A stretch of DNA of 64,000 bases from Streptomyces sp. YIM 121038 (GTDB taxonomy: Bacteria; Actinomycetota; Actinomycetes; Streptomycetales; Streptomycetaceae). Position numbers and translations under genes: made by a program. Each line of letters begins with the position of its first letter. Position 1 is the first letter of the stretch. The notes beneath the pieces are model-generated. The model was not told where the DNA came from and did no database searches. It saw only the letters and a list, made by a program, of their open reading frames with translations. Where the stretch lies: positions 5,785,501-5,849,500 of the forward strand of contig NZ_CP030771.1 in the NCBI RefSeq assembly GCF_006088715.1, written 5' to 3'. Shown here in pieces: positions 54,591-58,845 of this stretch.

Positions 54591-55466
54591 GTGAAGTCAG
54601 CTGTGTCGCGTGTGGTGGTGGCCGCCTCGGTCGTGGCGACGCTGGGCCTGACCGCGGCGTGCGGCGGCGGTGACGGCGGCGGCCGCGACGGAGCCAAGTC
54701 GTCGACGGAGCAGGCGAAGCCGAAGGGGTCGGGCGGCGGCGAGTCGGGCGGCGGGGAGTCGGGCGGGACCGGCGCGGCTGACGGAGGCGGTGGGCCGGGT
54801 GGTACGTCGGGCGGCTCGTCGGGCGGTGGTCGCGCACCGGCGAAGCTGACGGCCGCCTCCCTGGCCAAGGGCGACGTCCGCGGCCACGACGTGGCGCCGC
54901 GCAGGCCGAACAAGCTGGAGGCCGCGTGGGCCGGCGCGCCGGCCTCCCCGGCCGCCTGCGCCCCGTTGGCGGACCTCCTGACGCCCGCCACGCCGCCCGG
55001 GGCGAAGGGGCACGTCGGCCGCACGGTCACCGGCAAGAGCACCCGCGCCATGTCGACGACGGACGTCGAGCTGTACGCGTACGACGACGAGGACGCGGCC
55101 GAGCGGGCCCTCGCGGATCTGCGCGCGGCGACCAAGGCCAAGAGGTGCTCCGCCTTCCGCACGGGCGACCTGCGCTACTCGGGCGTCAAGACGCTGACCG
55201 CGCCGGACAAGGGTGACGGGGCCGTCAGCTACCGCCTCGGCGGCCGTCAGGGCGAGTTCGTGAAGCGCTGGACGGTCACCGTCGTGCGCAAGGGATCCAC
55301 GCTCGTGTCCTTCGCCGCGTCGAGCCTGTACGACCCCCAGAGCGTGGCGCGCGACGACGAGAGCCGGGAGGACGGCGGGTTCGACCAGCCGACGGCGGAC
55401 AGGGCGGACACCCAGCCGAAGGTTCCGGCGGCGGTCATGGACGCGCAGCTGGCCAAGGTGAAGTAG
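54591..55466 (+). CDS. lipoprotein of unknown function
   Basis: 291 residues from GTG 54591. Lipoprotein signal with LTAAC (Cys24), a Gly/Ser/Lys-rich linker (about 25-80), then a domain of about 200 residues (KLTAASLAKGDVRGHDV... VSYRLGGRQGEFVKRWTVTVVRKGSTLVSFAASSL) with two Cys. The domain outline resembles the sensor-like lipoprotein domains common in streptomycetes, but no function can be assigned. It may be exported and tethered to the membrane outer face. Confidence 0.85.
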   Translation: MKSAVSRVVVAASVVATLGLTAACGGGDGGGRDGAKSSTEQAKPKGSGGGESGGGESGGTGAADGGGGPGGTSGGSSGGGRAPAKLTAASLAKGDVRGHDVAPRRPNKLEAAWAGAPASPAACAPLADLLTPATPPGAKGHVGRTVTGKSTRAMSTTDVELYAYDDEDAAERALADLRAATKAKRCSAFRTGDLRYSGVKTLTAPDKGDGAVSYRLGGRQGEFVKRWTVTVVRKGSTLVSFAASSLYDPQSVARDDESREDGGFDQPTADRADTQPKVPAAVMDAQLAKVK

Positions 55467-55486
55467 CGGACGCGGGCGGCGCCGCC

Positions 55487-55562
55487 GGGGGAGCCCCGGG
55501 TCGGGGGCCCCAGGTCGGGGGAAGCCCTGCGTCGGGGGGAGCCCCGGGTCGGGGGAGCCTCG
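55487..55562. repeat. GGGGGAGCCCCGGGTC tandem repeats
   Basis: About four imperfect units of 16-19 bp with alternating GGGGGAG and CCCCGGGTCG, directly after the lipoprotein gene. Confidence 0.65.
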
Positions 55563-55587
55563 GCGACACCGCCCGCCGAAACGAGCG

Positions 55588-55620
55588 AAGGGCCCCGCGG
55601 GACGGATCCGCGGGGCCCTT
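55588..55620. terminator. terminator after the lipoprotein gene
   Basis: AAGGGCCCCGCGG (55588-55600) pairs perfectly with CCGCGGGGCCCTT (55608-55620), 7-nt loop. Confidence 0.85.
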
Positions 55621-55627
55621 GGCTGTC

Positions 55628-55656
55628 AGCACCGACGTCAGGGCAGCGTCGGTGCT
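55628..55656. terminator. second hairpin after the lipoprotein gene
   Basis: AGCACCGACG (55628-55637) pairs perfectly with CGTCGGTGCT (55647-55656). With the previous hairpin it isolates the following region from upstream transcription. Confidence 0.7.
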
Positions 55657-55739
55657 TCGGGGCGGCGCCGGGGGGAGTGCGCCGCTGGTTCGTGTGCCGG
55701 TGGCCGACCCGGCGCGCAAGGGGCGCACGGCTGGTTTAG

Positions 55740-56024
55740 ACCAATGGCAATGAAGTTCTGCAAGGGGCGGCTGCCCGCTCGCCCTCTACGCATCGTGGAG
55801 GATGGCTGGTTCTCTGCGCAACCGTTTCGACTACATCCACTTGTGCCCGAGGGGAACACCCGGGCGGGAGGCCTGGAGGCCGGTCGGCTCCGGGCGTCCC
55901 CGGAGCCGACCGTTCCCTGGGTGACCGGGCTGCTGTCCCCTGCCGTCCGGTCACATCTCTGGGGCGAGGTCCCACGGCGTACGGGTGATCCGTACGCCTC
56001 ATCGCCCCAGCGGAGGAGCCACGC
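55740..56024 (+). other. unassigned structured region upstream of a possible ORF
   Basis: No convincing gene. It contains a perfect 14-bp hairpin (55881-55894 with 55899-55912, CGTC loop). A composite hairpin has outer arms CTGGGGCGA/TCGCCCCAG (55959-55967, 56002-56010) and inner arms GGCGTACGG/CCGTACGCC (55976-55984, 55990-55998). The second hairpin ends 1 nt before GGAGGAG (56012-56018). A short ATG-initiated frame (55802-55921) reads MAGSLRNRFDYIHLCPRG. The layout resembles a leader or regulatory RNA. Confidence 0.45.
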
Positions 56025-56375
56025 GTGGTTCTTTCGGGCCGCCCGCCCCTGGCTGGCACGGACACCGGGACCAACGAAGCCCGTCGGGAACCGGTCACGC
56101 GCCGTACGGGTGAGAAGGCGTCCGAACTCAGGTCCGTGGCGCAGTGGTTCCGCGTGCGCACGTGCCCGCGCGGGACGGCCCTTGCGGTGGGCTGCGGTGG
56201 GCTGCGATGGGTCTCGGCGTGGCCGCGGCGTGGCCGCCGTGCGACTGCCGTGCGACTGCCGTGCTGCTGGGGTGCGGCTGCCGTGCGGGCCGGGTGGCCT
56301 CAGACCCGGCCGCGGCACAGCTCCAGGAGCGTCATCGCGAGCGCGGTGCCGGGCTTGCCGAGCGCGTCCCGGTAG
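56025..56375 (+). CDS. possible small ORF behind a structured leader
   Basis: GTG 56025 has a strong ribosome site, GGAGGAG 6 nt upstream. The first 55 or so residues (VVLSGRPPLAGTDTGTNEARREPVTRRTGEKASELRS...) have plausible codon use. After about 56190 the frame enters short tandem repeats and finally runs antisense into the chorismate mutase gene, which argues against the full length being functional. No family recognised. Confidence 0.25.
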   Translation: MVLSGRPPLAGTDTGTNEARREPVTRRTGEKASELRSVAQWFRVRTCPRGTALAVGCGGLRWVSAWPRRGRRATAVRLPCCWGAAAVRAGWPQTRPRHSSRSVIASAVPGLPSASR

Positions 56376-56605
56376 TGGGCGAGGATCTCCATCTCGCGCG
56401 AGAGGTTCACGCGCCGCCCGCCCGAACTGATGCGGGCCTCCTGGATCACCGCGGAGACCGCCATCCGCTCCTGGACCAGACCAATGATCCGGTCATCGAG
56501 CGCGTCGATCCGTTCACGGGCACCGCCGATCAGCTCGGCGGCTTCGGGCGTACGGGCACCCGTCCGCTCGGCGGGGGTGGTGGGCTGCTGCGTGGTGGCG
56601 GTCAT
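56300..56605 (-). CDS. chorismate mutase, AroQ class
   Basis: 101 residues; GAGGAG 7 nt before ATG. The all-helical AroQ fold is seen: ARERIDALDDRIIGLVQERMAVSAVIQEAR with the catalytic Arg/Lys-equivalent positions, then NLSREMEILAHYRDALGKPGTALAMTLLELCRGRV. It converts chorismate to prephenate, the branch to Phe and Tyr. Monofunctional and cytoplasmic (no signal). Upstream is a transcription leader with a Phe/Tyr-containing mini-ORF and terminator, strongly suggesting attenuation control. Confidence 0.92.
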   Translation of the reverse strand: MTATTQQPTTPAERTGARTPEAAELIGGARERIDALDDRIIGLVQERMAVSAVIQEARISSGGRRVNLSREMEILAHYRDALGKPGTALAMTLLELCRGRV

Positions 56606-56672
56606 GGTGGGGCTCCTCGCTGGAGTCGTCTGGCGGGGGTGCCCCGGAGCGAAGGACCCGGAAACGACAGGA

Positions 56673-56698
56673 CGCCCCGGGCCTTTCGGCCCGGGGCG
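56673..56698 (-). terminator. attenuator hairpin of the chorismate mutase leader
   Basis: On the minus strand CGCCCCGGGCC, GAAA loop, GGCCCGGGGCG: perfect 11-bp stem with a GNRA tetraloop, followed by TCCTGTCGTTTCC. It lies 24 nt after the leader-peptide stop and 67 nt before the chorismate mutase ATG. Confidence 0.75.
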
Positions 56699-56722
56699 CC
56701 TGGGAAGTCGCTTGTCAGGAGA

Positions 56723-56794
56723 TCAAGCAGCTCGACCATGGCAGCCGGCGGGCCGGTTGCCATAGGTAAAGAGGAAGCCGAGGTGCTTGTTCAC
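56723..56794 (-). CDS. 23-residue leader peptide with Phe-Leu-Phe-Thr-Tyr run
   Basis: GTG 56794 to TGA 56723-56725; the peptide contains GFLFTYGN. Phe9 and Tyr11 use TTT and TAT, rare codons in this genome. Directly after the Tyr codon is a self-complementary stretch (56738-56763, ten pairs around one A-C mismatch). One of its segments (CGGCCCG) can alternatively pair with the 5' arm of the terminator (CGGGCCG). No Shine-Dalgarno precedes the GTG, which coincides with the predicted transcription start, so translation would be leaderless. Confidence 0.65.
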   Translation of the reverse strand: MNKHLGFLFTYGNRPAGCHGRAA

Positions 56795-56831
56795 GGAGCC
56801 AGTATGCCCCCAGGCGTGCGCGGCGGGTCAA
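56795..56831 (-). promoter_or_regulatory. promoter of the chorismate mutase leader transcript
   Basis: On the minus strand TTGACC (56831-56826), 19 bp, CATACT (56806-56801). Start of transcription is expected about 7 nt downstream, at the GTG of the leader peptide. Confidence 0.55.
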
Positions 56832-57255
56832 ACCGGGTGTGAGCTGGCTCGCATACTGAGACGCACGCTCGGTCATGGCGCCCCTGCCTCCCTACGGGCG
56901 GCCCCTCCGCTCTGCGGGGCCCTCCGCCCCGGGGGGAGAGAGAGCGGGCGGGCACAGGGCGGACCGCCGCCGCGCCTGCTCCCCGCCCTCGCCCCCCACC
57001 TCGGCGGACCTCGGCCCAGCCTCCAGCGGGCCCCGTGCAGGGGCGGAGCGGTTCCCTGAGCGGGGTCGGGGGCGGCCGCCGAGGGGCCCCGCCACCGGGG
57101 CCGCGGGCCCGTCGTCCGTCGGATACGACGAAGGCGCCACGGCCGGGCCCGTTAGAATCGACAAAACAACCCCAGCTCCAACCGCGCGCGCACCCCTCGT
57201 GCACCCTTCCGCTCACGAACCTCCTGCGCACGCTCAACGCCGGAAGGCCGCCGCC
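56832..57255 (+). promoter_or_regulatory. guaA upstream region
   Basis: 424 bp with no supported gene. TAGAAT (57153-57158) is a good -10; the -35 is indistinct. GGAAGG (57242-57247) is the guaA ribosome site. The open frame extending guaA upstream is an artefact of GC-rich DNA. Confidence 0.5.
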
Positions 57256-58845
57256 GTGTCCTCAGCGACTCCCGCTGCCGCCGCTCCCGACACCGTTCTG
57301 GTCGTCGACTTCGGAGCGCAGTACGCCCAGCTCATCGCCCGCCGCGTCCGCGAAGCCCGGGTCTACAGCGAGATCGTGCCGAGCACCATGCCGGTCTCCG
57401 AGATGCTCGCCAAGAACCCCGCGGCGATCATCCTCTCCGGCGGCCCGTCTTCGGTGTACGCGGAGGAGGCCCCCTCGGTCGACCGCGCCCTGTTCGAGGC
57501 GGGCGTCCCCGTCTTCGGCATGTGCTACGGCTTCCAGCTGATGGCCACCACCCTCGGCGGCACCGTCGACAACACCGGTGCCCGTGAGTACGGCCGCACC
57601 CCGCTCAGCGTCTCCAAGCCCGGCTCGACCCTCTTCGAGGGCACCCCGGCCGAGCAGTCCGTGTGGATGTCGCACGGCGACGCGTGCAGCGCGGCCCCCG
57701 AGGGCTTCGCCGTCACCGCCTCCACGGACGTCGTCCCCGTCGCCGCCTTCGAGAACGACGAGAAGAAGCTCTACGGCGTCCAGTACCACCCCGAGGTCAT
57801 GCACTCCACGCACGGCCAGCAGGTCCTGGAGCACTTCCTCTACCGCGGCGCGGGCCTGAAGCCGAGCTGGACCACCGGCAGCGTCATCGACGAGCAGGTC
57901 ACCGCCATCCGCGCCCAGGTCGGCACCAAGCGCGCCATCTGCGGCCTGTCCGGCGGCGTCGACTCCGCGGTGGCCGCCGCCCTGGTGCAGAAGGCCATCG
58001 GCTCCCAGCTGACCTGCGTGTACGTCGACCACGGCCTGATGCGCAAGGGCGAGACCGAGCAGGTCGAGAAGGACTTCGTGGCCGCCACCGGCGTGCAGCT
58101 GAAGGTCGTCGACGCCCAGGAGCGCTTCCTCACCGCCCTCGCCGGTGTCTCCGACCCGGAGACCAAGCGCAAGATCATCGGCCGTGAGTTCATCCGCGTC
58201 TTCGAGCAGGCGCAGGCCGACATCATCGCCGAGGGCGCCGCCGACGGCGAAGAGGTCGCCTTCCTCGTCCAGGGCACGCTCTACCCGGACATCGTCGAGT
58301 CCGGCGGCGGCACCGGCACCGCCAACATCAAGTCCCACCACAACGTGGGCGGCCTCCCCGAGGACCTGGAGTTCGAGCTCGTCGAGCCGCTGCGCCAGCT
58401 CTTCAAGGACGAGGTGCGCATGGTCGGCCAGGAGCTCGGCCTGCCCGACGAGATCGTCCAGCGCCAGCCCTTCCCGGGCCCCGGCCTCGGCATCCGCATC
58501 GTCGGCGAGGTCACCAAGGACCGCCTCGACCTGCTGCGCGAGGCCGACGCCATCGCCCGCGAGGAACTCACCGCCGCCGGTCTCGACCGCGAGATCTGGC
58601 AGTGCCCCGTGGTGCTCCTCGCCGACGTCCGCTCCGTGGGCGTCCAGGGCGACGGCCGCACCTACGGCCACCCGATCGTGCTGCGCCCCGTCTCCTCCGA
58701 GGACGCGATGACGGCCGACTGGTCCCGCCTGCCGTACGACGTGCTCGCCCGCATCTCGACCCGCATCACGAACGAGGTCGCCGACGTCAACCGCGTCGTC
58801 CTCGACGTGACCAGCAAGCCGCCGGGCACCATCGAGTGGGAGTGA
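57256..58845 (+). CDS. guaA: GMP synthase (glutamine-hydrolysing)
   Basis: 529 residues from GTG 57256, GGAAGG 8 nt upstream. It aminates XMP to GMP. The class I glutamine amidotransferase domain (about 10-205) shows the nucleophile in GMCYGFQLM and YHPEV. The ATP pyrophosphatase domain (about 215-400) has the P-loop [12 protein letters not shown]. The C-terminal dimerisation domain ends with [12 protein letters not shown]. Upstream readings that lengthen it by 127 residues lack any GuaA homology. It completes, with guaB, the guanine branch represented in this window. Confidence 0.97.

What the first reader, a model, noticed from the sequence alone, without database searches (positions are those of the whole stretch)
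56606..56831. Leaderless Phe/Tyr attenuator in front of chorismate mutase
The minus-strand leader of the AroQ gene has every part of a classical attenuator. A promoter is placed so that transcription starts on the GTG of a 23-codon ORF. The ORF contains GFLFTYGN with two rare codons (TTT, TAT). A self-complementary segment begins at the Tyr codon, and an 11-bp GAAA-capped terminator lies 24 nt after the ORF stop. A 7-nt segment inside the ORF (CGGCCCG) can pair with the terminator's 5' arm (CGGGCCG). A ribosome stalled for Phe- or Tyr-tRNA would favour read-through. I do not know of a description of such control for a Streptomyces chorismate mutase.
Basis: partly seen in the sequence, partly recalled or inferred. 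Interest (0 to 1): 0.82.

Follow-up and report, generated by a model that had tools for sequence, protein, structure and literature searches.

The report
Leader-peptide switch controlling chorismate mutase
In front of a Streptomyces gene needed to make phenylalanine and tyrosine lies a tiny gene whose translation speed probably decides whether the RNA is finished or cut short, and the same arrangement stands before the same enzyme gene in many other actinobacteria.

Summary
At 56794-56723 (minus) a 23-codon mini-ORF begins 6 nt after a -10 hexamer, carries Phe TTC, Phe TTT and Tyr TAT, and is followed by an 11-bp terminator, 67 nt before aroQ (chorismate mutase).

The leader lies upstream of aroQ in 46 of 46 Streptomyces-genus loci with upstream sequence and in 35 of 42 loci from other families, some weak. 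TTT and TAT are fixed in the 46 although both codons are rare. A DNA pattern for the divergent version found 119 stretches in named genomes (Mycobacterium, Mycolicibacterium, Mycobacteroides, Rhodococcus, Pseudonocardia, Actinomycetospora and others); 115 of 119 have aroQ just downstream.

One correction: the antiterminator is a long nested helix between the 3' half of the ORF hairpin and most of the terminator's 5' arm, not only 7 bp.

Best explanation: classical ribosome-mediated transcription attenuation sensing charged tRNA-Phe (perhaps also tRNA-Tyr), from a leaderless leader ORF: a new, taxonomically broad member of a known kind. My searches found no description in open-access papers and no Rfam family; one specialised 2010 survey could not be read. 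No expression data were available, so regulation itself is inferred.

The parts
56826..56831 (-). weak -35-like TTGACC, 19 nt from the -10
   Evidence: sequence; spacing variable in relatives
56801..56806 (-). -10 hexamer CATACT, 6 nt before the mini-ORF start
   Evidence: sequence; -10-like hexamer 6 or 7 nt before an in-frame start in 151 of 159 leaders
56723..56794 (-). leader ORF VNKHLGFLFTYGNRPAGCHGRAA, predicted leaderless
   Evidence: 46 of 46 genus loci with upstream DNA
56762..56776 (-). control codons TTC-CTC-TTT-ACC-TAT (Phe, Leu, Phe, Thr, Tyr)
   Evidence: TTT and TAT in 46 of 46 genus leaders against 11 of 356 and 28 of 351 in coding-like frames of the window
56736..56765 (-). 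hairpin P1 (segments 1:2), starts at the Tyr codon
   Evidence: pairs near-invariant in the genus, Tyr wobble base and partner change together between lineages
56736..56755 (-). segment 2, 5' side of the antiterminator
   Evidence: ribosome-masked folding; pair counts
56687..56703 (-). segment 3, 3' side of the antiterminator, overlapping the terminator 5' arm
56673..56698 (-). intrinsic-terminator-like hairpin, 11 bp, GAAA loop, weak U-tract
   Evidence: stem kept in relatives
56300..56605 (-). aroQ, monofunctional chorismate mutase, the regulated gene
   Evidence: NF005894 125.6 bits over cut-off 73; Pfam CM_2; nearest solved relative Rv0948c

Best explanation
A classical ribosome-mediated transcription attenuator with a leaderless leader ORF. 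Transcription starts on or next to the GTG of the mini-ORF and a ribosome begins at once. When Phe-tRNA (and possibly Tyr-tRNA) is plentiful the ribosome runs through TTC-CTC-TTT-ACC-TAT to the stop codon; segment 2 is then covered or locked in P1, the terminator 56698-56673 folds and RNA polymerase stops before aroQ. When the ribosome stalls at the Phe/Tyr codons it covers the 5' side of P1; segment 2 (56755-56736) is freed and pairs with 56703-56687, most of the terminator's 5' arm, so polymerase reads into aroQ. Shown: anatomy, conservation, link to aroQ, a helix with the antiterminator's logic that covaries between lineages. Inferred: the real transcription start, translation, termination, read-through on starvation, and which amino acid counts.
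For: Leader in 46 of 46 genus loci and 35 of 42 loci of other families. TTT/TAT fixed though rare. -10 hexamer 6-7 nt before an in-frame start in 151 of 159 leaders. 115 of 119 pattern loci have aroQ 124-263 nt after the motif. One strong full-length copy in 36 of 37 genus genomes, 35 of them upstream of aroQ on the same contig. Antiterminator helix: 84.4% of cells paired on 71 divergent leaders against at most 57.6% when slid, pair 25-80 GC 35, GU 17, CG 10, covariation score reached by 0 of 500 shuffles. Terminator arm more occupied with the ribosome at Phe than at the stop in 46 of 46, 13 of 13 and 71 of 75 leaders of three groups; 20 of 23 representatives above their shuffle mean. Experiment-backed analogue: C. 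glutamicum aroR (Phe-Tyr-Phe) before aroF (PMC11802643 passages).
Against: No transcript, termination or starvation data. Only 2 Phe and 1 Tyr codon, no run. Weak U-tract. In the remaining 20 leaders (mostly Pseudonocardiaceae and smaller families) only 10 show the stalled/stop difference; L065, L066 and L123 fall below their shuffle mean. Within the genus the antiterminator shows no covariation. Own-versus-swapped arm energies give at most a weak preference. Without a ribosome the window's RNA cut at the terminator loop already prefers the antiterminator at equilibrium (0.86 against 0.87 occupied), so P1 must act by forming first. In S. coelicolor ilvB, changing leader codons had no effect (PMC1262725 passage), so look-alikes can mislead.
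Confidence: 0.85

Rival explanations
1. Nascent-peptide arrest: the peptide F-x-F-T-Y-G (RRFFYGYR in other families) itself stalls the ribosome in response to a pathway metabolite, and that stall, not tRNA charging, drives the same RNA switch.
For: The core peptide is conserved across families, and Arg-Phe-Phe-Tyr-Gly-Tyr-Arg is longer than simple codon sensing needs.
Against: Codons as well as residues are fixed (TTT, TAT). After Tyr-Gly the Streptomyces peptide shifts frame in L013 with the hairpins kept and is unrelated between families. Leader length before the core varies.
Confidence: 0.06
2. Translational control: the leader mainly hides or frees the aroQ ribosome-binding site, or feeds ribosomes to it by reinitiation, and the hairpin before aroQ is not a true terminator.
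For: U-tract is weak in Streptomyces. Mean Shine-Dalgarno accessibility is slightly below shuffles (0.29 against 0.38 in 44 genus loci; 0.45 against 0.52 in 68 others). Reinitiation after leader peptides is proposed for actinobacteria (PMC4833913, passages).
Against: No consistent sequestering structure in the folds shown. The stop codon lies 117 nt from the aroQ start here, far beyond the 10-11 bp at which that paper sees its peak (abstract passage). The hairpin with the arm-sequestering helix fits termination.
Confidence: 0.06
3. A trans-acting small RNA or small protein whose position before aroQ is incidental.
For: A short terminated leader RNA with a conserved peptide is predicted; the S. 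meliloti trp leader peptide acts in trans (PMC7298713, abstract start in listings).
Against: aroQ follows in 115 of 119 pattern loci and in the 35 genus genomes where both lie on one contig; codons match the pathway.
Confidence: 0.02
4. A metabolite-binding riboswitch.
For: A conserved structured leader before a biosynthetic gene.
Against: Conservation is explained by an ORF with pathway codons plus three simple helices; no Rfam match.
Confidence: 0.01

Closest known systems
aroR leader of aroF, Corynebacterium glutamicum (Neshat et al. 2014, not read; known here from passages of PMC11802643 and PMC4046766)
   Same: Actinobacterial leader peptide with Phe and Tyr codons (Phe-Tyr-Phe), attenuation of an aromatic amino acid gene.
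   Different: Controls DAHP synthase, not chorismate mutase; responds to Phe, not Tyr. I did not compare its sequence with this leader.
pheL-pheA attenuator, Escherichia coli (passage of PMC11802643; details recalled)
   Same: Phe leader peptide before a chorismate mutase activity.
   Different: Bifunctional chorismate mutase-prephenate dehydratase; run of Phe codons and a ribosome-binding site (recalled).
Leaderless leader peptides of Streptomyces (leuL, trpL, ilvL, metL, thrL; PMC8079986, passages)
   Same: Leaderless leader ORF, hairpins, in several cases a Rho-independent terminator.
   Different: Other amino acids and genes; 8 are listed in Table 4 and none is for chorismate mutase or Phe/Tyr.
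uORFC-13-1 motif before aroF (PMC8632094) and two shikimate uORFs of Fig. 6b (PMC6429828); passages
   Same: Predicted uORF regulation of shikimate genes with Phe (and Tyr) codons.
   Different: uORFC-13-1 is before aroF and has a ribosome-binding site; genes and hosts of Fig. 6b are not given in the passages I saw.

Membership tests
Classical ribosome-mediated transcription attenuator | Short leader ORF with codons for an end product of the regulated pathway | tested here: met
   2 Phe and 1 Tyr codons, aroQ feeds Phe/Tyr; conserved
Classical ribosome-mediated transcription attenuator | Rho-independent terminator between leader ORF and gene | tested here: met
   11-bp GC stem, weak U-tract; a hairpin passing my thresholds in 154 of 159 leaders. 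Termination itself not measured.
Classical ribosome-mediated transcription attenuator | Mutually exclusive antiterminator sharing sequence with terminator and with the ORF hairpin | tested here: met
   By computation only; weak or absent in about half of 20 leaders of smaller groups
Classical ribosome-mediated transcription attenuator | Control codons placed so that a stalled ribosome blocks segment 1 | tested here: met
   P1 starts 1 nt before the Tyr codon; masked folding
Classical ribosome-mediated transcription attenuator | Read-through rises when the cognate tRNA is uncharged | not testable with these tools
   needs expression data
Leaderless leader ORF (actinobacterial type) | -10 hexamer 6-7 nt before the start codon | tested here: met
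   151 of 159 leaders
Leaderless leader ORF (actinobacterial type) | Mapped 5' end on the start codon | not testable with these tools
   no transcript data; supplementary files not available
C. glutamicum aroR-aroF type leader | Regulated gene is DAHP synthase | tested here: not met
   regulated gene is aroQ; no Phe/Tyr leaderless ORF found at the best DAHP synthase locus of this genome, L211
Any Rfam 15 family (T-boxes and known amino acid leaders included) | Score at or above a family's gathering threshold | tested here: not met
   window 55000-58500: 10 matches with E up to 5, every one below its gathering score; 0 matches in 8 loci of several families

The most novel reading that the evidence does not exclude
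An ancient, class-wide regulator: one Phe/Tyr attenuator on the chorismate branch-point enzyme, kept as a single copy from Streptomyces to Mycobacterium, that reads two amino acids at once through Phe and Tyr codons held in rare wobble forms, and that is the RNA-level control point of this branch in these bacteria.
Probability: 0.3. Interest if true: 0.72.

Novelty: new member of a known kind. Interest (0 to 1): 0.56.

Why it matters
The 2005 survey of actinobacterial RNA regulation reported no conserved RNA structures upstream of phenylalanine or tyrosine operons (PMC1262725, passage). This leader fills that gap at the branch point where chorismate goes to Phe/Tyr instead of Trp. It gives a testable handle on aromatic precursor supply in antibiotic producers and an RNA family that could be annotated across the class.

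Tried and rejected
Own-versus-swapped duplex energies as a test of the antiterminator: too blunt because all arms are GC-rich; gave at most a weak preference. Replaced by pair counts on alignments and ribosome-masked folding with shuffles. My first automatic finders picked wrong hairpins or a wrong Tyr frame for several loci; corrected. Shine-Dalgarno sequestration: no consistent structure. Other Phe-pathway genes of this genome: no leaderless Phe/Tyr ORF at the prephenate dehydratase locus or the best DAHP synthase locus (2 of the 6 fetched loci scanned, L210 and L211). Further hits of the RNA model start at E 6.6e-6; most cover only the terminator part (about positions 70-106), a few weak ones span the model; none was followed up. 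Ten paper searches showed no description of a chorismate mutase attenuator in actinobacteria; 'SCO4784' (recalled name of the S. coelicolor gene) gave 0 papers. Not readable: Lopatovskaya et al. 2010, D'Halluin et al. 2023, all supplementary tables.

Rows dropped before counts: L010 (98 nt upstream) and L070 (73 nt) from conservation counts; L105 from the leader set. The leader set of 159 was built from L001-L170; L171-L209 were checked only for aroQ and promoter. Five of 159 had no terminator by my thresholds (L072, L110, L127, L129, L142). A3 has 71 of the 73 references made (L128 and L157 left out by hand for long tails); A4 has 45 of 46 (L089 dropped as identical). The pattern loci were chosen by their 5' sequence, so their core codons and most of the P1 5' arm are fixed by the search. 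The 5-codon core was also part of the regular expressions used to find genus leaders, but no genus locus with upstream DNA failed them in the end.

Full report
What is there. On the minus strand, 189 nt upstream of the aroQ start, a -10 hexamer CATACT (56806-56801) lies 6 nt before a GTG that opens a 23-codon ORF, VNKHLGFLFTYGNRPAGCHGRAA (56794-56723). Codons 7, 9 and 11 are Phe TTC, Phe TTT and Tyr TAT. A hairpin P1 (56765-56736) begins one nucleotide before the Tyr codon. After the stop come 24 nt and an 11-bp GAAA-capped stem (56698-56673); aroQ begins at 56605. The leader folds far better than shuffles (z -5.08, 0 of 200). The gene is a monofunctional chorismate mutase (NF005894, 125.6 bits, cut-off 73; Pfam CM_2); its nearest solved relative by sequence is the intracellular chorismate mutase Rv0948c. 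A GMP synthase gene is divergent on the other side.

Conservation in the genus. Protein searches over 61 genomes and 148 genomes of the class supplied aroQ loci. Of 47 loci taken from the genus (L001-L036, L080-L090) L010 ends 98 nt upstream; the other 46 carry the leader. The usual peptide is M(L/R)xHxTF(L/V)FTYGxRPxGCHGRAA; variants replace the first Phe (L023 Tyr, L028 Leu, L036 Val) or shorten the core (L080 WFSYG). TTT and TAT are fixed in 46 of 46, whereas coding-like frames of the window use TTT 11 times in 356 Phe codons and TAT 28 times in 351 Tyr codons. TAT is also part of P1; TTT is not, so its fixation points to decoding. A covariance model of 45 leaders found a strong full-length copy (E below 1e-14) in 36 of 37 genomes of the genus; comparing coordinates, 35 lie upstream of aroQ on the same contig. 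In G002 the copy is on another contig and the aroQ contig ends in the terminator region (L010); in G008 aroQ itself is a fragment.

Beyond the genus. Of 43 aroQ loci from other families (L037-L079), L070 is truncated; 35 of the other 42 have a Phe/Tyr leader, 7 do not (L055-L058, L060, L061 in one family; L079, a second aroQ copy). Cores include FRFSYGF, RRFFYGYG, RRFSYGH, RRFGYGF, RRFFYGYR, SYFYYG and RFFYGGR. L063, L065, L066 and L072-L074 are weak (fewer aromatic codons), and the -10 test found nothing in L064, L065 and L072-L074. aroQ-coding sequence starts 124-263 nt after the motif in 115 of 119 (77 of the 80 listed). The other four are three stretches that end 102-116 nt after the motif (L124, L147, L195) and one Chitinophagaceae MAG without leader context (L105). 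In 151 of 159 leaders (44 of 46 and 107 of 113) a -10-like hexamer lies 6 or 7 nt before an in-frame start: the geometry of leaderless transcription. By eye L029 and L036 also have -10-like hexamers (AATAAT, GATACT).

The switch. Folding the RNA up to the terminator loop with a ribosome over the Phe codons gives one nested helix: CGGCCCG, GGC, GCC and UGG of the ORF with CCA, GGC, GCC and CGGGCCG at the terminator, the stop codon lying in the apical hairpin. This explains why CCATGG and CCCAGGCGCCCCGGG are conserved. The same topology appears with different letters in Rhodococcus, Pseudonocardia and mycobacterial leaders.

Tests of the helix. On 71 divergent leaders 84.4% of cells pair, against at most 57.6% when slid; the pair of columns 25 and 80 is GC in 35, GU in 17, CG in 10 and unpaired in 9 of 71; the covariation score is reached by 0 of 500 shuffles. 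The GC/CG change follows one clade, so it may be few events. On 45 Streptomyces leaders 91.4% of cells pair against at most 50.3% slid, but there is no covariation; the 7-bp part alone pairs in 83.8%, the other part in 97.3%. P1 changes in step between lineages: Tyr codon TAT with partner A in the genus (46 of 46), TAC with partner G in 77 of 85 leaders of the mycobacterial/pseudonocardial set; in the two nearest families my simple search found the A partner in 5 of 13 and none in 7. With the ribosome on the second Phe codon the terminator arm is more occupied than with the ribosome on the stop in 46 of 46 genus leaders, 13 of 13 of the two nearest families and 71 of 75 pattern loci, but only 10 of 20 others; 20 of 23 representatives exceed their shuffle mean (0.71 against 0.50 on average), while L065, L066 and L123 do not. 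Against this: own-versus-swapped duplex energies give at most a weak preference, and without a ribosome the window's RNA cut at the terminator loop already prefers the antiterminator at equilibrium, so P1 must act by forming first; that is inferred from the general attenuation model.

Mechanism. Plenty of Phe/Tyr-tRNA: the ribosome reaches the stop, segment 2 is covered or locked in P1, the terminator forms, aroQ is not made. Scarcity: the ribosome stalls on TTC/TTT (or TAT), P1 is blocked, segment 2 takes the terminator arm, aroQ is transcribed. Shown: anatomy, conservation, compatible pairing. Inferred: transcription start, translation, termination, response. Phe is the likelier signal, since in the C. 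glutamicum aroR leader (Phe-Tyr-Phe) Phe and not Tyr availability matters (PMC11802643, passages).

Rivals. Arrest peptide: the tail after Tyr-Gly shifts frame in L013 with the hairpins kept and is unrelated between families; codons, not only residues, are fixed. Translational control: no consistent Shine-Dalgarno sequestration. Trans-acting RNA: the place before aroQ hardly varies. Riboswitch: no Rfam match.

Novelty. The kind is known: leaderless leader peptides of other Streptomyces genes (8 in Table 4 of PMC8079986, none for chorismate mutase), the C. glutamicum aroF leader, Phe uORFs before aroF elsewhere (PMC8632094; PMC6429828). The 2005 survey saw no conserved structures before Phe or Tyr operons (PMC1262725). 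Of the papers named I saw passages only. Ten paper searches found no description of this leader, but subscription papers, notably Lopatovskaya et al. 2010, and supplementary tables were out of reach; the premature transcripts tabulated for S. clavuligerus (PMC8269248, passages) may include it unlabelled. That the window is from Streptomyces is my inference from the genome's kin and genes; no call names it.

Noticed in passing
L037, L039, L041, L049, L050-L054, just before the core Phe codon: In the protein-retrieved loci of several families the Phe codon TTT is preceded by the Arg codon CGA (rare in the window: 33 of 1336 Arg CGN codons). Why CGA-TTT is kept is unexplained.
   Followed up: no
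L055 and L057, the 230 nt upstream of aroQ: These two loci lack the Phe/Tyr leader core but share another conserved stretch (CAGGTCTGTTTCACGGTGAA...GTTCTGACACGAGGAGATGAATG) and have leaderless-type mini-ORFs of their own.
   Followed up: no
L079 (genome G135) against L069: A genome with two aroQ copies keeps the leader only before one; G145 also has two copies, of which one was fetched.
   Followed up: partly
L210, 1466-1482: The prephenate dehydratase gene of this genome looks leaderless itself (TAGGGT, 6 nt, ATG) and has no Phe/Tyr mini-ORF by my scan.
   Followed up: partly
window 56672-56606: Between terminator and aroQ the genus keeps a GTCGCTCCGGGGC-like stretch complementary to parts of the aroQ ribosome-binding region; folding showed no consistent structure.
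   Followed up: partly
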